Positions 50,423 through 59,316 of a stretch of 64,000 bases of DNA are shown in pieces; within the stretch, counting starts at the first letter, position 1, and every line of letters starts with the position of its first letter. Source of the DNA: Planctomycetaceae bacterium (GTDB taxonomy: Bacteria; Planctomycetota; Planctomycetia; Pirellulales; Pirellulaceae); assembly GCA_012729315.1 (NCBI GenBank), contig JAAYDI010000065.1:1-64000 (forward strand), written 5' to 3'. The notes under the pieces are model-generated. The model was given only the letters and a program-made list of their open reading frames with translations. It did no database searches and was not told the DNA's origin. The translations under genes were made by a program, and so were the position numbers.

Positions 50423-50523
50423 GCTGCGGTACCACCACTTTACGCCCGCGACGACTTGTCGCAGAATTGACGGACAGTTTTTCCACGAAATCATCCACGG
50501 CAAGAACTTCGGGAGACCGTGCC

Positions 50524-52812
50524 ATGGCATGGCGAGGGACTCGTGCTGTCCTCGGGATGGCGTTGATACTGGGATTATGTTGGCATAGTGTGGCTGCCGG
50601 CGATGAAGACTCGCGCTTCGCGGCCACGCACAGTCGCAGCCAGTACGTGCACTGGATCGACCTGTACGATGCGACCGATACCAAGATCGATCCCAGCGAC
50701 CCGAACGCTCCCCCCTACTCGCCGGTGTCCACCTGCGGCCGCTGTCACGACTACGAGGCGATCGCCCATGGCTACCACTTCAATGCCATGCAGGCCATGC
50801 AGAAGCCGGATTCCACGAGCCGTACGGGTGAGGCCTGGATCTGGACCGACGCGCGCACCGGGACGCAGATCCCCCTGTCCTACCGCGGCTGGCCCGGCAC
50901 GTACGATCCGCGGAGCCTGGGCATCAGCGCATGGGATTTCGTGCTGAAATTCGGCCGCCACCTGCCCGGTGGGCCGGTTGCGGGGCCGGCGCGGGATGTT
51001 TCGGCACGCGACGCGGAGGACGCAGAGGAGCCCGGTGCTGAGGCGGCCACGGCCAGTCCGCCGCCAAGTGTACCTGACGTACCTGACAACGGCCGCTGGA
51101 AGCTGTCCGGCGAGCTGGCCGTCGACTGCATGATCTGCCACAGCAACGACGCGGCCTACAGCCCGGAAGTCTGGTGGGATCAGATCTCGAAACAGAATTT
51201 TGCCTGGGCTCCGGCCGCAGCGCTCGGAATCGCCGACATCGAGGGGGACGTTTCGAAACTGCCTGATGACTTTGATCCGGCAGCGGCGAAGCAGGCGGAA
51301 CCGGCCTCTGAGTCGGACACGCAGTCGGACACGCAGTCGGACACGCAGGATGGGTCACAGGACAGTGTGGGCGAGCAGACGCCCGCAGCCTCGGAAGGGC
51401 AGGATGGGGCGCCGGCCGAAGCGGACGCTGCCGGGGACGCGCAGGAGGCTGGCAACAGTGCCGGGGCGCGCGCCGCCGACGGGCCGACGCTGCCCAAGAC
51501 CAGGTACCGGACCCTGCGGATGAGTGCGGACAAGAAGGTGTTTTTCGATGTGGTCAAGACGCCCGCGGACAACACCTGTTACTACTGCCACACGGCGCGT
51601 TTTGCCAGCACCGATGCGGCTGGTGATTGGACGCACGATGAGGATGTGCATTTGCGGGCCGGCATGACCTGCTCCGACTGCCACCGAAACGGCATTGAGC
51701 ACGATACGGTGCGGGGCTTCGAAGGGGAGCAGCACTCGACCAGCGCCAGCGTCGCGACGCTTTCCTGCCGCGGCTGTCACCTGGATGACAAAGACGAAGT
51801 GGCACGCGTGGTGGGAGGCCGTCTGGGCGCGCCCAAGCCGCTGCATCGCGGACTGCCAACCATTCACCTGGAACTGCTTTCCTGCACCGCCTGCCATTCC
51901 GGTCCGCAGCTGGACCGGGACAAGCAGGTCTTCCGCGTCCAGACGGCGATGGCCCATGGGCTGGGACTGCCCACGCACTCGCTGAACGCCGATTCGGAAC
52001 CGGGTATTGTGGCTCCCGTGATACTGAAGTCCGACGGGGTGCTCTACCCGCACCGCACGGTCTGGCCGGCGTTCTGGGGCGAGATGCAGGGGACGGATGT
52101 CAAGCCGCTCAGCCCGCAGGCCGTCTACGACACGCTGCGGACGACCCTCCGCGTGCGTGGGAACTCCACCTTCACCGAGACGCTCGGCAAGGTGACGCTC
52201 AAGGCCGAAGACAAGGCCGCGGTGCTGGGCGAAGAGCGGGCGAAGGTGGCCCCCGCGGAACTCACGGCGGACGAGCGCGACAAGCTCGCACAACTCGAGA
52301 AGACCAAATCGGCCGAGACGTTCCGTGAGAAGCTGAGTGCGCCGCTCAAGAAGCTCAAGACCCTCATCCAGACGCCCGACGCACAGCCGGTGTACGTGTC
52401 GGGGGGACGCGTCTATCGGTTGGGGCAGGACGGCGAGACCGTGGAAGTGCTCGCCGAGCAGGTTGCCGCGGCCCAGCCGTACTCTTGGAAACTCGCCCAT
52501 GACGTCCGCCCGGCGCGCTGGTCGACCGGCGCGAGCGGCGGCTGCTATGAATGCCACAGCCTGGGATCGCCGTTCTTTGACAGTCAGGTCACGGCGGTTG
52601 GCCCGGCGCCCGATGTGGAGCCTCCGTCGGAGCGCATGGCGGAACTGGCCGGCCTCGATCGCCTGCGCATCGATACCTGGAACCTGTCCTTCCAAGGCCG
52701 TGCGGCCTTCAAGTGGTTCGGCTTCGCCTCGGCCGGCATTGTCGGCCTGGTGTTGCTGTCGTTCGTCTTCCTCGGGATCAACGGATTGGGTGGTTTCGCG
52801 CGGCGATCCTAG
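50524..52812 (+). CDS. Seven-haem cytochrome c with C-terminal membrane anchor
   Basis: 762 residues from the ATG at 50524. N-terminal signal (VLGMALILGLCWHSVAAG) for export. Seven CXXCH haem motifs: CGRCH 71, CMICH 202, CYYCH 352, CSDCH 383, CRGCH 415, CTACH 454, CYECH 674. Between haems 2 and 3 there is a long acidic Ser/Ala-rich insert with repeated QSDT. A single membrane helix lies at about 735-757 near the C-terminus. Spacing of haems is unlike NrfA or tetrathionate reductase. Followed 35 bp later by a cytochrome-b-like subunit; together they probably form a quinol-linked membrane oxidoreductase. Substrate unknown. Confidence 0.85.
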   Translation: MAWRGTRAVLGMALILGLCWHSVAAGDEDSRFAATHSRSQYVHWIDLYDATDTKIDPSDPNAPPYSPVSTCGRCHDYEAIAHGYHFNAMQAMQKPDSTSRTGEAWIWTDARTGTQIPLSYRGWPGTYDPRSLGISAWDFVLKFGRHLPGGPVAGPARDVSARDAEDAEEPGAEAATASPPPSVPDVPDNGRWKLSGELAVDCMICHSNDAAYSPEVWWDQISKQNFAWAPAAALGIADIEGDVSKLPDDFDPAAAKQAEPASESDTQSDTQSDTQDGSQDSVGEQTPAASEGQDGAPAEADAAGDAQEAGNSAGARAADGPTLPKTRYRTLRMSADKKVFFDVVKTPADNTCYYCHTARFASTDAAGDWTHDEDVHLRAGMTCSDCHRNGIEHDTVRGFEGEQHSTSASVATLSCRGCHLDDKDEVARVVGGRLGAPKPLHRGLPTIHLELLSCTACHSGPQLDRDKQVFRVQTAMAHGLGLPTHSLNADSEPGIVAPVILKSDGVLYPHRTVWPAFWGEMQGTDVKPLSPQAVYDTLRTTLRVRGNSTFTETLGKVTLKAEDKAAVLGEERAKVAPAELTADERDKLAQLEKTKSAETFREKLSAPLKKLKTLIQTPDAQPVYVSGGRVYRLGQDGETVEVLAEQVAAAQPYSWKLAHDVRPARWSTGASGGCYECHSLGSPFFDSQVTAVGPAPDVEPPSERMAELAGLDRLRIDTWNLSFQGRAAFKWFGFASAGIVGLVLLSFVFLGINGLGGFARRS
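51311..51346 (+). repeat. 12-bp coding tandem repeat
   Basis: The unit AGTCGGACACGC occurs three times in succession inside the multihaem cytochrome gene, giving the QSDT repeats of its acidic insert. Likely to vary in copy number by slippage while keeping frame. Confidence 0.85.
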
Positions 52813-52847: not shown

Positions 52848-53459
52848 ATGTTCAACGACCTGACTACCAAGCTGGCGGATATTCTGCATCATCCTGGCCG
52901 GATCTTTCCGGCCGTGGTGGCGATCGTGCTGATTGCCACGGCCGCGATCGTGATCCTGCACCTGTTCATGGCCTTGCTCGGAGGGCACGCAGCGAAGCAG
53001 CGGCGGCGATTCAATCTCTGGGAGAAACTGGTCTATCTGGCAGCCCTCGTGAGCGTAGCCGCGCTGGCGATCACCTCGTTCTACGCCGTGCTGCGCTTGG
53101 GCGGGATGCATGGCTGGTGGTTGTTCGCCCACATGTTCGGCGCCGGTGCGATGACGGGCACGCTGCCCTTGCTGGCCTTGACCTGGTGCGGCGCCCACTG
53201 CTGCTGCGGGGCCACGCACCGGCCGGCCAATGAAGCCGAGCCGCCGCGGTTCTTCTGGATCCCCCGCGTCATGTTCTGGCTGTTCCTGCTGGCCGGCCTC
53301 GTCCTGATACTCACGACGATGGTGAGCATGCTGCCGCTGTTCGGCAGTGAGGGGCTGGAAGTGCTGCTGAATCTCCACCGCTACGCCGGATTGCTGGCCG
53401 TCGTCGCCCTGGTGATCCACCTCTACTGCGTGCTGCTGCAGCGCGCCCAGCTGCGCTGA
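52848..53459 (+). CDS. Membrane cytochrome b-like subunit
   Basis: 203 residues from the ATG at 52848. Four to five hydrophobic helices with paired histidines suited to haem b: HLFMALLGGH in the first, HGWWLFAHMFGAG in the third, and HRYAGLLAVVALVIH in the last. A cysteine-rich loop (WCGAHCCCG) joins helices in the middle. Resembles cytochrome b561/NrfH-class quinol-oxidising partners only in layout. Same operon as the seven-haem cytochrome. Its last codons and stop are duplicated by the 36-bp repeat at 58170-58205. Confidence 0.75.
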   Translation: MFNDLTTKLADILHHPGRIFPAVVAIVLIATAAIVILHLFMALLGGHAAKQRRRFNLWEKLVYLAALVSVAALAITSFYAVLRLGGMHGWWLFAHMFGAGAMTGTLPLLALTWCGAHCCCGATHRPANEAEPPRFFWIPRVMFWLFLLAGLVLILTTMVSMLPLFGSEGLEVLLNLHRYAGLLAVVALVIHLYCVLLQRAQLR

Positions 53460-53463
53460 CCCG
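53428..53463 (+). repeat. 36-bp direct repeat, left copy (candidate attL)
   Basis: Begins GCGTGCTGCTGCAGCGCGCC and ends at the ACCCG just after the stop codon of the cytochrome b gene. Identical over 36 bp to 58170-58205. It lies in the 3' end of a gene, as integration sites of many islands do, and the intervening 4.7 kb is accessory DNA. Confidence 0.85.
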
Positions 53464-53514
53464 CGGCCAGATGTCAGAACACGGTAATCGCCACAGCATT
53501 CCGTAGGGTGTGTC

Positions 53515-53660
53515 GAGCGAGCCAGGACACCCTGTTTCTTTCTTTTGTTCTCCGCCACCGTGGCGGAGAACATAGTCCATAATCCATAATGACCAAATCC
53601 ATAACGACCAAAACCACCAAGATCGGTTCAAATTCCGTTCTAGCGCAACCGACTGCGATA
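53515..53660 (-). pseudogene. IS66-like 5' remnant
   Basis: The 53520-53640 stretch resembles positions 60-155, including CTCCGCCACCGTGGCGGAGAAC, CCATAATGACC, and GACCAAAACCACCAAGATCGG followed by TTCAAAT. On the minus strand it starts a frame MAENKRKKQGV, similar to MAESKRKTGCP of the IS66 start at the left edge, but then diverges. So only the 5' flank and a dozen codons of the element remain. Confidence 0.55.
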
Positions 53661-53757
53661 ACAAACAGGGCGACGCGAGGCGGCGGTCACGTCCGGGATG
53701 ATGATTGGGTCACTTGCGCCGCCGGCGTGACCCCTGTCGTTCGGTGGAGAATCAGAC

Positions 53758-54174
53758 GTGACGCTTACACATTTGCTTGAGATGTTGCGGAAAGATGGTG
53801 GTGGCGCCGAGGGGTGGCCCGTGCTGTTTACTGCCTACAAGAGAGATGCATCGGGTGAGTGGCGGGAGGTCGACGACGGACGCGAGGCCATTACATCTGT
53901 CGAGGTCGATTGCGACGGGCATGAGGTATTGTTGGTGCGTGACTCCGGCATGCCCGCACTTTCCCTGAAGGCCCTGGAAGAGAAACTCGGCGAGTTGGTC
54001 TCACAGCACGCTGACTTTACCGTTGATTCCTGCGAGGGGCCTATCGATGATGATGATGGGATGGGATTTCGTATTGACATGCCCGTGGTTGCGGCTGGCC
54101 GAGACGCCGCCAACAAATGCGTTCTCGTCATATATGCGTACCCGGACGGTCCAACCGAACCACCAGAGAACTGA
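53758..54174 (+). CDS. Orphan hypothetical protein, 138 aa
   Basis: GTG start at 53758 with a GGAG about 12 nt upstream. No signal or membrane segment. It reads as a soluble alpha/beta protein with EGWPVLFTAYKRDASGEW near the start, SVEVDCDGHEVLLVRDSGM, then an acidic loop DDDDGMGFRIDMPVV and VLVIYAYPDGPTEPPEN at the end. Family not recognised. It lies just inside the island, apart from other genes, as orphan immunity-like or cargo genes often do. Confidence 0.6.
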   Translation: MTLTHLLEMLRKDGGGAEGWPVLFTAYKRDASGEWREVDDGREAITSVEVDCDGHEVLLVRDSGMPALSLKALEEKLGELVSQHADFTVDSCEGPIDDDDGMGFRIDMPVVAAGRDAANKCVLVIYAYPDGPTEPPEN

Positions 54175-54179
54175 AAGAC

Positions 54180-54677
54180 TCGGGCGTCGACGTGGCCGCG
54201 AATCGCCGCCGAACCACGCGGTGTGCGGGAGGTACCGCACCCCTGGTGCAGGGTCGCCAACCTGACACAGGGTTCGCAGTGAGAAGTAAACATACGACGT
54301 GTCTCCCTCGGGCATGCCCAGTTTCGCAACCAACGGCACCACTTCCTGGCGTTGCGTTTCTCGCGTGGCGTACACGTCGCGTCGAAATGGCGTTGGCCCG
54401 AATGCCGGCACATAATTGCGCAGGCGTGGCTTTGGGGAGACGATGAAGTGTCTTTCCTTCGCGCTCGATCACCTCCGGACAAACGGTGGCATCCGCCTGT
54501 CCCAGGATGTACGCCGCGATCGTCTCCCGCCCCATTTCGATCAATCCGCTCCACGTAGTCTCTTCCACTTGATGTACCGCATCCCTCTGTTCGGCACCGT
54601 TCGAGCTGTTTGAGCAAGCAGCTTGGAAAAGACCTTGGCAGCCTTGCAGAACCGATCCTCAACTTCGATAATCATGA
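54180..54677 (-). pseudogene. ISKra4-family transposase, N-terminal remnant with frameshifts
   Basis: On the minus strand, ATG near 54675 opens a frame MIIEVEDRFCKAAKVFSKLL. After a frameshift another frame gives ETTWSGLIEMGRETIAAYIL and EREGKTLHRLPKATP, and after a second shift FRRDVYATRETQRQEVVPL followed by GMPEGDTSYV. These three pieces in order match the N-terminus of ISKra4 transposases. The rest, including the DDE catalytic part, is absent. No terminal repeats were identified. Confidence 0.65.
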
Positions 54678-55204
54678 CGTGGGCTCCTGTGGTAGGACAC
54701 TGAAACATGTTACTGATGCTTCAATGTCATGTCCTGGAGCCCTCTTCGCGCACACTTGACGTGACAAATGCGTGTCACTCTGTGTGGAATGGACAGGGCG
54801 CGGCAGCGCGCAATGGAGGTTACAACCAAATGGAGACCCGCGTCGCGTCGATGGGGCAAGCGCGGCTCGCCTCCTCCGTCCATCATGCCTGCCGGCCGCG
54901 GGAAACTGCCGACGGCTCCGTGCGCGCCGATGAAGTTGGCGACTGGCGCAACGTGCTGGCCCAAGCCCTCTCCGCCCTCTACCCCGCCGGCACCGACGAG
55001 AAGCGCTGGGTCGATGGCGTGTTGGCCTGCAAGAGAGGCTTGGGGTTCTGAGATCCTCATTACCTGACAACTGATACCACAAACACCACGACATGCGAGA
55101 CCTCACCGAGTCCGACCGACGATGAAGTTCGCGAGGCTTTTGCCCGGCTTCACGTCTGAGTCGATGAAGTACCAGCCGTCGCGCTGCGACGTTAGGAGGC
55201 GGTT
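54678..55204. other. Spacer before the ATPase operon, one weak small ORF
   Basis: A frame from an ATG at 54830 (GGAGG at 54815-54819) to 55051 would give a 73-residue protein ending in VLACKRGLGF, but composition is not convincing. The operon promoter should lie here. No promoter could be assigned. Confidence 0.3.
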
Positions 55205-56455
55205 ATGCTCCAAAACCTCTGTTTGCATGGATTCAAAAACTTTCGAGACGCCCGTTTGCCGTTGGGGAATCTCACCCTGTTGGTCGGGACGAATGCCTCC
55301 GGCAAGAGCAATCTGCGCGATGCCTTCCGGTTCCTTCACGGCATGTCGCGTGGGTACACGCTAGCCGAGATCATCGGCGAAAAGTGGATCGAAGGTGGCA
55401 CTCTTCAATGGAAAGGCATTCGGGGTGGAACCCGGGAGGCAACGTATTGCGGCCAGGCGACGTTCTTAATCGAAGCTACTCTGTCACCCCACGTCGGCGG
55501 CGGCACGTACAAGATCGAAGTCGAGGTTGGGGCCAACGGCAAGGCACCCCGCGTCATCAGGGAATCTCTCTGGGGTGGAGCGACCATGTATTTCGATTCG
55601 CACGACACGGACGACCCGCCCGCGCAGGAGGGGCCGCAGTATCTGTTCGTGCGCCTGCCCCGAGACGCAAGGAACCGGAAGCATGGGAAACGGCTGCGTT
55701 TCGTCTCCAGCCAGCCCGTGTTGTCGCAGATCACCGCCCATGATGAAGCCACGGCGGAGGTACGGTCTGTCGCCAAGCGGGTTATGCAGGCGCTGGGGTC
55801 GATGCGATTCCTCGACTTGGCCCCGGATGCGATGCGGATTCCGTCGCTGCCCGGCCAGGACATCCTGGGCGACCGGGGTGAGAACCTTTCATCCGTGCTC
55901 CAGTCGATTTGCGAGTCCGCGTCAACCAAGGCCGCAATCCTTGAATGGATTCGCGAACTGACCCCGCTCGATGTGACCGACTTCGAGTTTGTGTCGGATC
56001 AAACGGGCAAGATTCTGGTGACGCTGATCGAGTCCGGCGGGCAGAAGACCTCCGCCTACAGCGCCTCGGACGGGACACTGCGGTTCCTGGCAATGATTGC
56101 TGCGATGTTGGGCACCAAACCGGCGAAGTTCTACTTTTTCGAGGAACTGGAGAACGGCATTCACCCCACGCGATTGTACCTGCTGCTGCAACTCATCGAG
56201 CAGAAAGTTGCTGACGGCAAGATTCAGGTGGTGGCCACCTCACATTCGCCACAGTTGCTGGGCTTCCTGGGCGACAAGGCCCGAGCGGATGCCGCACTCG
56301 TTTACCGCTTGGAGAACCAGCCTGATGCCCGGATTCGCCGCATCGTGGAGATTCCGGAAGCCGACCGAGTGCTGCGTGATCAAGACTTGGCGCGGCTTCT
56401 TGCCTCGGGATGGTTGGAGGACGCGGTTGCTTTCTCAGAGGGGGCCGGCACATGA
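55205..56455 (+). CDS. OLD/RecF-like ATPase, first gene of a candidate defence pair
   Basis: 416 residues from the ATG at 55205, 5 nt after AGGAGG at 55194-55199. Begins MLQNLCLHGFKNFRDAR, then Walker A GTNASGKSN at 28-36, the SMC-like signature near SASDGTLRFLAM, Walker B KFYFFEELENGIHP at 308-321, and the H-loop VVATSHSPQLL at 342-352. This is the AAA-15/21 (ABC-type) ATPase shape used in OLD, AbiL and retron systems. It overlaps the TOPRIM-like gene by four bases (ATGA), implying coupled translation. The nuclease domain of OLD is absent, so the partner probably supplies it. Confidence 0.9.
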   Translation: MLQNLCLHGFKNFRDARLPLGNLTLLVGTNASGKSNLRDAFRFLHGMSRGYTLAEIIGEKWIEGGTLQWKGIRGGTREATYCGQATFLIEATLSPHVGGGTYKIEVEVGANGKAPRVIRESLWGGATMYFDSHDTDDPPAQEGPQYLFVRLPRDARNRKHGKRLRFVSSQPVLSQITAHDEATAEVRSVAKRVMQALGSMRFLDLAPDAMRIPSLPGQDILGDRGENLSSVLQSICESASTKAAILEWIRELTPLDVTDFEFVSDQTGKILVTLIESGGQKTSAYSASDGTLRFLAMIAAMLGTKPAKFYFFEELENGIHPTRLYLLLQLIEQKVADGKIQVVATSHSPQLLGFLGDKARADAALVYRLENQPDARIRRIVEIPEADRVLRDQDLARLLASGWLEDAVAFSEGAGT

Positions 56456-57027
56456 ACGTCTACGTCATTCCGGAGGACTTCCGCAAGGACCAATACATCC
56501 TGAAGCCCATTGTCAAGGCGATGCTGGCCGCCATCGGCAAGCCCCGAGCCAATGTGCGAGTCTGCCAGGATCCGCTGCTGGGAGGCGTCACGGAGGCCTT
56601 GAAGTGGGAACGGATTAAGGAAATCCTGGACCTCTATCGTGGCATGGTCCAGGTCTTCTTGCTGATTGTTGACCGCGATGGGCAGGATGGCCGGCAAATC
56701 GCGTTGAATACCCTGGAAAAGAAGGCCGTCGCGGCCTTGCCCGAGGACAGGATCTTCTTCGCCGAAAACGCCTGGCAGGAAGTTGAAGTCTGGCTGTTGG
56801 CCGGGCACGATTTGCCGAAGGCATGGAGTTGGCAGGATATCCGCCAGGATCCGAATCCCAAAGAAGCCTATTTTCTTCCGTTCGCTGAAAACCGAGGCGT
56901 CACCGACGAGCCGGGGCAGGGACGCAAGTCTCTCGCACGCGAGGCGGCCGGCAATTACGCGAAGATCCGTTCCCGTTGCACGGAAGATGTTGTCGCATTG
57001 GAAAAACGCCTGTCTAAGAGGATCTGA
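56452..57027 (+). CDS. TOPRIM-like protein, partner of the ATPase (RloB/AbiLii or DUF4276-like)
   Basis: 191 residues. Starts MNVYVIPEDFRKDQYIL with a Glu at position 8, then a strand FLLIVDRDGQDG with D74 and D76 (DxD), the layout of TOPRIM nucleases. It continues with FFAENAWQEVEVWLLAGHDLP, the ExWLLA segment found in DUF4276 and RloB-type proteins. With the ATPase upstream it fits two-gene abortive systems, in which the ATPase probably gates the nuclease-like partner. Whether it cuts DNA or RNA is unknown. Confidence 0.75.
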   Translation: MNVYVIPEDFRKDQYILKPIVKAMLAAIGKPRANVRVCQDPLLGGVTEALKWERIKEILDLYRGMVQVFLLIVDRDGQDGRQIALNTLEKKAVAALPEDRIFFAENAWQEVEVWLLAGHDLPKAWSWQDIRQDPNPKEAYFLPFAENRGVTDEPGQGRKSLAREAAGNYAKIRSRCTEDVVALEKRLSKRI

Positions 57028-57059
57028 ACCAGCATCGTTCAATCCCAGACAGTCACCAT

Positions 57060-57368
57060 TCTCCGCTTTGACGGGTGGCGCCGCGAGACGCGGTTTACCC
57101 TGGGCTTTGGAGTGTAACGCCTTCGGCGTACTCCGCGGCTCGACCGACATGTTCTCGGGCATGCGTACCCACGGGTGGCGCCGCGAGGCGCGGCTTACCC
57201 TGGGCTGTGTTAGGGGCGCCGCGCTACGGCTCAAGACGACATTTCGCGTGGCGCGAATAGGTCACGAAACGTGACTTCTGTCGACACACGAACAAAACGT
57301 GATTGCTGCCACGATACGAGTTGCTTTTCACATGCATGTGGCGCAAGTATTGCAACCGGAGGGTCTAC
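57060..57368 (+). repeat. Dispersed palindromic repeat, copy A (full composite)
   Basis: Contains the hairpin GTAACGCCTTCGGCGTAC, two iterations of the GGGTGGCGCCGCGAG unit (near 57074 and 57173), GGGGCGCCGCGCTACGGC and the palindrome GTCACGAAACGTGAC. It is the longest copy; B, C and D are partial. It lies directly downstream of the TOPRIM-like gene. Confidence 0.8.
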
Positions 57369-57374
57369 TTCGCG

Positions 57375-57515
57375 CGGAACACGCACGGTCTTGCCATAGA
57401 TGATTGCCACCACCGTGCGACGCGCTCGTGGATCACGCGCCTCGACTTCCTCGGCGAGCCAGTCGAACACGACCTTTTTGGCGTTGACCTCTTTACCTTC
57501 GACCTCCCGCGTGGG
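57375..57515 (-). pseudogene. Second ISKra4-like transposase remnant
   Basis: A minus-strand frame here contains EGKEVNAKKVVFDWLAEEVE followed by ARDPRARRTVVAI. The VFxxLxxxVxxRDPxxRRxxV pattern matches the middle of ISKra4 transposases just before the catalytic region. It is bounded by repeat DNA at one side and by unrelated sequence at the other, so only about 45 residues are left. It cannot belong to the other remnant, because its order on the minus strand is wrong. Confidence 0.45.
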
Positions 57516-57535
57516 ACGGTGAAAGGCTGGAGATT

Positions 57536-57660
57536 CATGTCTGCTGTGATCCCTTCGGAATCGTGAAGCAGAAGATGTTGTAGGTGTTGCTGAAGAACTG
57601 GGCGGAAAACGGATGTTCCTTCTGGTCTCCAGAGAAACGCACGGCAACTTCTGGGTACAA
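57536..57660 (-). other. Unassigned protein-like fragment
   Basis: One minus-strand frame reads SGDQKEHPFSAQFFSNTYNI and then FCFTIPKGSQQT before a stop. It looks protein-like but has no start or recognised family. Possibly the end of a gene destroyed by the nearby insertions. Confidence 0.25.
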
Positions 57661-57739
57661 TGGCGCCGGCTCTTTGGCGCGTCGTGTTCACACGGCGCTG
57701 ATTCCTGTCGTCGCGGTAGTGTTTTGAAGGGTAGTCGCC

Positions 57740-58099
57740 ATGTATAAACTGCCGAAAGACTTCGACACTGCTTTCTTCGTCGGCAAAACGTTGGAAGTCG
57801 TATTGTTCAGCGAGAACACCGTTTCATTTGGATTCGGCGACCGAGTATCGGTCACTGCGATGTCGTCCCTACAGCATCAGTTTCCCGCGGAAACCGATCA
57901 GTCGAATGTGCAAACCGTCCCTCTGAGCGAATCGAAACTGATGCAGTTGCCTGGCCATGTCGTCACGCACGCGACTGGCGACGAGAATGGTACGCTCACG
58001 ATCGTCTTCGATAATGGGCATGTATTGAGATTCTTCGACGACGACCCGCATTATGAGTGCTATTCAATCAGTGATGGTAAACGCGAGATTTATGTTTAG
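57740..58099 (+). CDS. Orphan DUF6188-like small protein
   Basis: 119 residues, ATG at 57740, weak purine-rich site (GAAGGG) 8 nt upstream. Beta-rich: GKTLEVVLFSENTVSFGFGD, then TLTIVFDNGHVLRFFDDDP and HYECYSISDGKREIYV at the end. The FDNGHxLRFxDDxPxYECY pattern recalls DUF6188 proteins, which often occur as orphan immunity-like genes. It is the last gene before the right 36-bp repeat. Function unknown. Confidence 0.6.
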   Translation: MYKLPKDFDTAFFVGKTLEVVLFSENTVSFGFGDRVSVTAMSSLQHQFPAETDQSNVQTVPLSESKLMQLPGHVVTHATGDENGTLTIVFDNGHVLRFFDDDPHYECYSISDGKREIYV

Positions 58100-58169
58100 C
58101 GCTCGCGCGTGGGGTCACAACACTGTGCGGCGTGTAAAGACGGCGATCGCCAGCGGGTGAGCAGGCCGA

Positions 58170-58205
58170 GCGTGCTGCTGCAGCGCGCCCAGCTGCGCTG
58201 ACCCG
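58170..58205 (+). repeat. 36-bp direct repeat, right copy (candidate attR)
   Basis: Exact copy of 53428-53463. Here it is not part of a functional gene: the upstream sequence does not continue the cytochrome b frame, which fits a duplicated target segment at the far edge of an inserted island. Confidence 0.85.
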
Positions 58206-58506
58206 TCAGCAGCGTCATGGTGTGACGTGCTCGCGGCTTTGCCGCTTGACGTTGGACGATTCGAATGGCGCGAGCGTGTCACACCCTACGCCTACATCCA
58301 TTCCGGACATGCCCCCCCTCGGGATGGGGTCCGGCAAACTGTGGCCGCAATCCTTGCCAGGATTTTCTCGCTTCTCTGGATTGCCGGGGCGAAAGTGGCT
58401 CTTCGAGAAACCATGCAGCCGAGTCGGTGGACGACCCGATGAATGGTGGGACGATCAAGTGTCTGTTCGTCTACTTGGATTGTGCGCAATCGACGGTGAT
58501 ACGCTC
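58206..58506. other. Spacer to the right of the island, no gene
   Basis: About 300 bp between the right repeat and the next gene. In-frame extensions of the next gene run back to 58222 but read as improbable protein. No repeat or terminator recognised. Confidence 0.5.
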
Positions 58507-59316
58507 ATGTGGTGCGGTGCCTGCCAGCAAGACGTTCCGGGGGTTGTTACCTCGTCACAGGAACCCAAGGTCTGCTGTGCCCGGTGCGGTCAGCCGATGC
58601 CGGGGGCCGGTGTCGACCGCAACAGGTTATCGGCGCCGCACTTTGCGTTTCCGGTGGACGAGCCATGTTTCGCCGCGTCAGGTTCTGGCGTGGGGACGGC
58701 CGACACGGAGGAGTTCCCGGAGTTCGTCGAGCTGGAGAACTGGGACTTCGAAGAGACGATTCGGCACGCGCGGCAACTGGTGCGAAGCGTCACCAGTGAT
58801 CTGGACGCGGACGCTGGCGTTGCCTCGAGCGAACCACTGAGCGCGGAGCCGCAGGTCGATTCCGAACCGTCGGCTGCGGCCAGCCAGTCAGCCGGCCGCG
58901 CGGGCGGTACGGTCGCCTGGCTGATCCTGGCCATTGGTCTGGGCGTTTTCACCTGCGGCGCGGCACTGATCGGACTGGCGCTGGTCCGGCATTCCACGCC
59001 GCTCTGGCAACTGGGGTTGCCCATGGTGCTCAGCGGGCAGGTGGCCGTGTTGTTCGTCGTAATCTGGCAACTGGAGGTTGTCTGGCACGGCAATCGTGCG
59101 ACGTTCGTCGCGCTGCATGCGCTGGACGAACAGCTGCGGCAGCTGCGTCAGCACGACGCGCCGGACCCGGCCGATTATATGTCGGTGCCGGCCGGTCCGG
59201 AGCGATCCGGGTCAGGCGGCACGACTTCTGCCGGTGCCGCCGCTTCCAACAGCGGTGCGAGCAAGCGGGCGGCCTCGGGCCCGCCCAGTTGGGCAGCCCG
59301 GCCGAGGAACCGGTAA
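58507..59316 (+). CDS. Zinc-ribbon membrane protein
   Basis: 269 residues from the ATG at 58507. The N-terminal MWCGACQQDVPGV and VCCARCGQPMPG form a four-cysteine zinc ribbon. A soluble stretch to about 130 follows, then two membrane helices (VAWLILAIGLGVFTCGAALI and LPMVLSGQVAVLFVVIWQL) and a helix ending LDEQLRQLRQHD. The last 45 residues are low-complexity and lie over the 3' end of the convergent TPR gene, giving a 142-bp tail-to-tail overlap. Function unknown. Confidence 0.65.
   Translation: MWCGACQQDVPGVVTSSQEPKVCCARCGQPMPGAGVDRNRLSAPHFAFPVDEPCFAASGSGVGTADTEEFPEFVELENWDFEETIRHARQLVRSVTSDLDADAGVASSEPLSAEPQVDSEPSAAASQSAGRAGGTVAWLILAIGLGVFTCGAALIGLALVRHSTPLWQLGLPMVLSGQVAVLFVVIWQLEVVWHGNRATFVALHALDEQLRQLRQHDAPDPADYMSVPAGPERSGSGGTTSAGAAASNSGASKRAASGPPSWAARPRNR

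What the first reader, a model, noticed from the sequence alone, without database searches (positions are those of the whole stretch)
53428..58205. A 4.7-kb island bounded by exact 36-bp direct repeats at the end of the cytochrome b gene
The last codons, stop and first downstream bases of the cytochrome b gene (53428-53463) recur exactly at 58170-58205, where no matching gene exists. Between them lie only accessory genes and IS debris. This is the arrangement left by site-specific integration at a gene 3' end. No integrase is inside, so it could be a satellite mobilised by another element, or the scar of one that lost its integrase.
Basis: partly seen in the sequence, partly recalled or inferred. 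Interest (0 to 1): 0.75.

Follow-up and report, generated by a model that had tools for sequence, protein, structure and literature searches.

The report
Integrase-less defence island behind cytochrome gene
A 4.7-kb block of foreign-looking DNA with a likely anti-phage gene pair sits behind a cytochrome gene of a planctomycete, between two identical 36-letter copies of that gene's end, the usual footprint of site-specific insertion, but no insertion enzyme was found in it; it looks like a new example of a known kind.

Summary
The exact 36-bp repeat (53428-53463, 58170-58205) occurs only twice in the 5.47-Mb draft genome at up to 3 mismatches. None of 11 other homologues of the gene in the family shows a duplicated end, one of them uninformative and two nearly so. 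Island G+C is 58.5% against 65.2%. Searches found no tyrosine or serine recombinase in it. The same genome holds a canonical counterpart: a 9.4-kb tRNA-Lys island with an integrase beside the tRNA. The main cargo is an ATPase/partner gene pair, a phage-defence candidate by its ATPase, with homologues on a cyanobacterial plasmid and a viral contig. Best reading: an island inserted at a gene 3' end that has since lost its integrase. No donor, helper or circle was found, so present mobility is unknown. New member of a known kind; interest 0.3.

The parts
50467..52812 (+). Multihaem cytochrome c ORF (first ATG may lie further in), left chromosomal flank, conserved in the congener
   Evidence: Cytochrome_C7 8.1e-9; collinear with G001
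52848..53459 (+). Cytochrome b-like membrane protein gene, 203 aa, target gene
   Evidence: Ni_hydr_CYTB E 1.4e-5, below its curated cut-off; 67% identical in G001
53428..53463 (+). 36-bp repeat copy 1 (left junction, gene end plus 4 nt)
53439..53458 (+). CAGCGC-8 nt-GCGCTG inverted repeat in copy 1 (same in copy 2 at 58181-58200); possible recombinase core, weak evidence
   Evidence: arms kept and spacer changed in G001; 3.3% of 36-mers of the window have 6-bp arms with 5-9 nt between
53464..58169 (.). Island between the two copies
   Evidence: absent at this place in G001; G+C 58.5% against 65.2%, below all 498 same-size windows sampled
53758..54174 (+). ORF of 138 aa without family
   Evidence: no plasmid match
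54231..54291 (+). 61-bp piece of a dispersed repeat of this genome
   Evidence: 40 matches in own genome incl. itself, 40 of 90 candidates scored; contexts
55205..56455 (+). AAA ATPase, 416 aa, phage-defence candidate PDC-M07A-like
   Evidence: AAA_21 1.9e-33; PDC-M07A 5.4e-71
56452..57027 (+). Partner gene, 191 aa, start overlaps the ATPase stop (ATGA); TOPRIM-like by motif (recalled)
   Evidence: DUF4276 E 0.02, below cut-off; conserved motifs in 4 homologues
57132..57364 (+). Dispersed repeat of this genome, not a coding gene
   Evidence: 43 matches in own genome incl. itself, 40 of 154 candidates scored
57740..58099 (+). DUF6188 protein gene, 119 aa
   Evidence: PF19686 9.6e-9, over cut-off
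58170..58205 (+). 36-bp repeat copy 2 (right junction)
58507..59316 (+). First gene after the island that is conserved in the congener (3' part of the ORF 58222-59316)
   Evidence: residues 96-314 match G001 just after its cytochrome b gene, 43%

Best explanation
[quoted passage not shown] Inferred mechanism: a circular element carrying the last 32 nt of the gene plus 4 nt (attP) recombined with the same chromosomal sequence (attB); this kept the gene's frame and stop at the left junction and left the displaced copy at the right one. The recombinase was probably a tyrosine integrase, since lost. What remains is chiefly a two-gene ATPase/partner unit. Shown: the two copies, their uniqueness in the genome, the empty site in a congener, the odd composition, no recombinase family found inside. 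Inferred: the integrase event, its class, the loss of the integrase, the defence role of the pair.
For: Exact 36-bp repeat straddling the stop codon and unique in the genome. Congener G001 with one copy and conserved order on both sides and none of the ATPase/partner DNA detected elsewhere. No duplicated gene end in 11 of 11 other family homologues, of which 8 have 9.8 kb or more of downstream sequence. Island G+C below every sampled window. The similarity stops abruptly at both ends of the 36 bp. A canonical tRNA-Lys island with integrase in the same genome shows the same layout. Homologues of the pair on a plasmid near an integrase and on a viral contig. Precedent: 15 Dehalococcoides ssrA islands without integration modules (PMC3146451, passages).
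Against: No recombinase, attP or helper was found. Only one congener shows the empty site; its site differs at 3 of 33 bases and the next 220-300 bp align poorly. The inverted arms are not rare (3.3% of 36-mers). The island holds dispersed repeats of this genome, which speaks against a fresh arrival from a distant donor.
Confidence: 0.72

Rival explanations
1. A living satellite: the island never needed an integrase of its own and is still excised and integrated in trans by the recombinase of a phage or conjugative element that uses the same core.
For: The two copies are still identical; no integrase remnant was recognised among the ORFs scanned; the genome has 14 tyrosine and 3 serine recombinase matches; the pair occurs on other mobile DNA.
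Against: No second place with the core in the own genome or in 397 class genomes searched, and none in viral contigs by the two exact patterns tried. Dispersed repeats inside suggest long residence.
Confidence: 0.1
2. Insertion without a site-specific recombinase: foreign DNA captured at a staggered break whose fill-in duplicated 36 bp, or a circle that entered by recombination at a short stretch of homology.
For: No recombinase found; the core's inverted arms are common enough to be chance; two pieces of dispersed repeats lie inside.
Against: The duplication covers the gene end and stop exactly as integrase islands do, including the tRNA-Lys island of this genome. Homology in a gene-bearing donor would be expected to reach further into the gene, but stops at 36 bp. 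A 36-bp target duplication is longer than those I know for insertion sequences (recalled).
Confidence: 0.14
3. Assembly artefact: the insert was joined wrongly in this draft MAG.
For: Draft genome of 213 contigs rich in dispersed repeats.
Against: Both flanks are neighbours in an independently sequenced congener, so at most the insert could be misplaced; 36 bp is shorter than the words assemblers usually rely on (general knowledge).
Confidence: 0.03

Closest known systems
Cis-mobilizable elements (CIMEs), as defined in PMC5704250 (passages read)
   Same: Bounded by att-like repeats at a gene 3' end; no integration or transfer genes recognised
   Different: No ancestry from an ICE or IME shown; no recombinase anywhere on the 172-kb contig C40 at the cut-off used, so no adjacent partner for accretion; function of the sites untested
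Dehalococcoides ssrA islands without integration modules (PMC3146451, passages read)
   Same: Cargo-only islands bounded by a copy of a gene's 3' end (20 bp there)
   Different: There many tandem islands at a tmRNA gene with related integrase-bearing neighbours; here a single island at a protein gene
PAISt of Streptomyces at the 3' end of bacA (PMC4057263, start of abstract in a search listing)
   Same: Integration at a palindrome at the 3' end of a protein-coding gene
   Different: Large transferable island; here 4.7 kb without transfer genes recognised
PARIS, AriA/AriB (PMC9122126, passages read)
   Same: AAA_15/AAA_21 ATPase beside a small TOPRIM-type partner, on mobile elements
   Different: Partner here has no DUF4435 match
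PADLOC candidate PDC-M07
   Same: ATPase matches PDC-M07A along 1-409 of 416 residues
   Different: Partner matches no PADLOC model at E up to 1; the name was found in no held paper

Membership tests
Site-specifically integrated genomic island | Direct repeats that copy the 3' end of the target gene at both ends | tested here: met
Site-specifically integrated genomic island | Empty site with a single copy in a relative | tested here: met
   one congener
Site-specifically integrated genomic island | Recombinase gene inside | tested here: not met
   no PF00589 or PF00239 match on contig C40 at E up to 0.001; none in the island ORFs scanned
Cis-mobilizable element | attL and attR-like sites retained | tested here: met
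   two identical 36-bp copies; that they work was not testable
Cis-mobilizable element | Integration and transfer genes absent | tested here: met
   no such family in the island ORFs scanned nor recombinases
Cis-mobilizable element | Descent from an ICE or IME | not testable with these tools
   no integrase-bearing relative of the island found
Cis-mobilizable element | Recombinase-bearing partner next to it (not part of the definition, needed for accretion) | tested here: not met
   no match on contig C40, 172,379 bp
PARIS | AAA_15 or AAA_21 ATPase | tested here: met
   AAA_21 117.3 bits, cut-off 27
PARIS | DUF4435 partner | tested here: not met
   no DUF4435 among Pfam matches at E up to 1
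PDC-M07 | M07A ATPase | tested here: met
   5.4e-71
PDC-M07 | Partner protein of the system | tested here: inconclusive
   partner hits no PADLOC model; composition of the system not found in print

The most novel reading that the evidence does not exclude
A minimal 4.7-kb defence satellite of planctomycetes: an att-flanked ATPase/TOPRIM-like cassette that carries no recombinase by design and is moved in and out of the 3' end of a respiratory gene by the integrase of an unseen helper phage or conjugative element.
Probability: 0.1. Interest if true: 0.5.

Novelty: new member of a known kind. Interest (0 to 1): 0.3.

Why it matters
It adds a concrete case, backed by an empty site, of an integrase-less island at the 3' end of a protein gene in Pirellulaceae. 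It carries an uncommon ATPase/partner pair with homologues on a cyanobacterial plasmid and a viral contig. It gives a precise 36-bp site with which to look for the missing integrase, and a gene pair whose anti-phage activity can be tested.

Tried and rejected
Chance repeat: rejected. Repeat as a dispersed family: rejected; 2 places in the own genome. With the 27-bp core at up to 3 mismatches, 2 of 241 family genomes match (own; congener with one copy at 3 mismatches) and 1 of 397 class genomes (own); the reversed control pattern had 1 hit, in one genome.

Donor or attP: exact 24-mer and arm-spacer pattern, 0 viral contigs each. At E up to 1, 19 plasmid and 6 phage records hold weak matches (best listed E 0.008 and 0.03; 8 of the 19 and all 6 rows seen); none was followed up.

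IS debris: no transposase match in the ORFs scanned (Pfam; PADLOC 16; PHROGs 17; NCBIfam 18) and no plasmid match for two overlapping ORFs there. I recall that the minus-strand ORF at about 54292-54658 resembles an ISKra4-type transposase; no call supports it.

Transposon ends: by eye only CGGCC near both inner ends; not pursued.

Partner fold: predicted from two sequences, mean pLDDT 58.1, pTM 0.51, too poor for a fold search. PDB sequence search of the partner profile gave 2 hits at E 0.05 and 0.35, not convincing. ATPase: only distant SMC and UvrA chains.

Other cargo: no plasmid match for 53758-54174, 57740-58099 or 57365-57823. ATPase in phages: 3 records, all under 60% identity.

Papers: only the held open-licence library was searched; I claim nothing about absence in print beyond those searches. 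In one search the one listed paper was the PARIS paper.
Full report
The repeat. Sequence 53428-53463 recurs exactly at 58170-58205. It comprises the last 32 nt of the cytochrome b-like gene (52848-53459), stop included, and 4 nt beyond. A search of the own genome (5,473,310 bp, 213 contigs) at up to 3 mismatches finds these 2 places only; the reversed control finds none. As a yardstick, 433,421 bp of the same genome (the window and 21 stretches, 16 of them chosen around recombinase genes) were scanned for exact direct repeats of 20 bp or more at least 500 bp apart. This pair is the only one of 30 bp or more spaced 2-20 kb. Other repeats of 30 bp or more are a dispersed family in the window (1459/57165, 1510/57211) and pairs about 1 kb apart in L059. 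One more stood out: 27 bp at a spacing of 9.4 kb in L064. It is the end of a tRNA-Lys gene, copied over 45 bp with one mismatch at the far side of a stretch that has a tyrosine integrase beside the tRNA. This is a positive control for what integration at a gene end looks like in this genome.

The empty site. Among 40 genomes (own one included) 5 hold the cytochrome b gene at E up to 0.001. The congener G001, found also as record JALOQX010000040.1, MAG of a Pirellulaceae bacterium, isolate Prado166, is collinear with the window on both sides: pieces of 44.2-53.46 kb align to L008 3-9233 and pieces from 58.95 kb on to 9896 onward. The gene after the island, the next one and a third that I name glycyl-tRNA synthetase from recall follow in order. 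The site is there once, 30 of 33 bases alike. The 220-300 bp after it are intergenic and align poorly. The island's DNA matches G001 in 3 places, all with the 61-bp dispersed repeat (40 of 70 candidates scored), so no ATPase or partner DNA was detected there. In the family, 12 of 241 genomes including the own one have the gene at E up to 1e-15. In all 11 others no piece of 13 bp or more of the gene end recurs downstream, but one has only 1 bp of downstream sequence and two only 1.8 and 3.1 kb. In the 9 of these given to besides G001, the right-hand neighbours were not found, so only G001 tests adjacency.

Island content. 53464-58169 has 58.5% G+C against 65.2% in the rest of the window and lies below all 498 overlapping windows of its size sampled there (lowest 59.1%). 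It encodes a 138-aa ORF without family, the ATPase at 55205-56455, its partner at 56452-57027 with overlapping stop and start (ATGA), and a DUF6188 protein. The ATPase matches the phage-defence candidate PDC-M07A over residues 1-409 (5.4e-71) and, more weakly, HEC-01A, AriA and others (99 PADLOC families in all, best 25 seen). The partner matches only DUF4276 below its cut-off. Four homologues share an early glutamate and a DxD motif, which I read as TOPRIM-like from recalled knowledge; the model from two sequences was too poor to test it.

Distribution of the pair. The partner was found in 3 of 296 order genomes, own included. At E up to 1e-60 the ATPase was found in 1 of 392 phylum genomes, the own one (in the rows shown at most 4 candidates per genome were scored). 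The best plasmid hit is pBOCT1 of Brasilonema, 60% identical, with a gene homologous to the partner (61%) next to it and an annotated integrase 2.2 kb away. There the pair lies between two 52-column direct repeats (45 of 52 columns identical, 9.1 kb apart) with the integrase just outside the left one; in the plasmid collection that repeat was found only in this record, twice. An IMG/VR contig has the pair (partner 61% identical) among genes that I read as phage structural genes from recall. The pair therefore occurs on mobile DNA; its anti-phage role is inferred.

Recombinase. Searches of the own genome find 14 tyrosine and 3 serine recombinase matches, none on contig C40 and so none in the island. 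Ten stop-to-stop island ORFs gave no recombinase or transposase family. The core holds CAGCGC-8-GCGCTG, kept in the congener while the spacer differs; but 6-bp arms with 5-9 nt between occur in 3.3% of the window's 36-mers (0.8% with exactly 8), so this agrees with a tyrosine recombinase site without proving one. Searches for the core elsewhere found no donor.

Age. The island holds a 61-bp copy of one dispersed repeat (40 matches, 40 of 90 candidates scored) and about 230 bp of another (43 matches, 40 of 154 candidates scored), both abundant in this genome. The second gave no match in G001. This suggests residence in this lineage for some time, or arrival from a near relative. It weakens the case for a recent arrival although the two 36-bp copies are still identical.

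Comparison. Integrase-less islands bounded by repeats of a gene end are known. CIMEs are described as elements that lost integration and transfer genes but kept attL and attR (PMC5704250, passages). Dehalococcoides has 15 ssrA islands without integration modules that 'might be' CIMEs (PMC3146451, passages). The present island is laid out like these; descent from an ICE or IME and function of the sites are untested, so it is not filed as a proven CIME. The pair resembles PARIS (PMC9122126, passages) in layout but has no DUF4435 match, so it is not filed as PARIS.

Verdict. Observation confirmed. The reading as a gene-end integration footprint is supported. Satellite or scar is open, with scar or decayed element more likely. 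New member of a known kind, interest 0.3.

Noticed in passing
window 57132-57364 (about 57071-57364 in the longest copies); also 1426-1587, and 2645-2761 inverted: Dispersed non-coding repeat of about 230-290 bp, 43 matches in the own genome at 85-95% identity for most, no match in the congener, often at contig ends; nature unknown, no Rfam match in the loci given.
   Followed up: partly
window 54231-54291; fuller copies in L099, L104, L105, L106: 61-bp piece, here without mismatch, of a dispersed repeat whose other copies share about 57 bp before and 85 bp after it; 40 matches at 91-100% in the own genome; similar 44-62 bp pieces at 82-89% in the congener. It folds stably as RNA by energy, no shuffle control made; no Rfam match.
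   Followed up: partly
L064 1018-10476 (G000:C101): 9.4-kb island at a tRNA-Lys gene: 45-bp copy of the tRNA end with one mismatch and a tyrosine integrase beside the tRNA. Its cargo was not examined.
   Followed up: partly
L033 3867-14037 (plasmid pBOCT1, CP030122.1): The homologous ATPase/partner pair of a cyanobacterial plasmid lies between two near-identical 52-bp direct repeats 9.1 kb apart, with a gene annotated as integrase just outside: possibly a second att-bounded segment with this cargo.
   Followed up: partly
L032 4875-6703 (IMG/VR contig): The same pair sits as a cassette among genes that look like phage tail genes (recalled reading of the ORFs), as if carried as cargo by a phage or prophage.
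   Followed up: no
window 57231-57806 (-): ORF with a weak, sub-threshold match to the Cas3 C-terminal domain (E 0.0065-0.0094), partly overlapping the dispersed repeat; chance or a gene remnant; no plasmid match for the overlapping ORF 57365-57823.
   Followed up: partly
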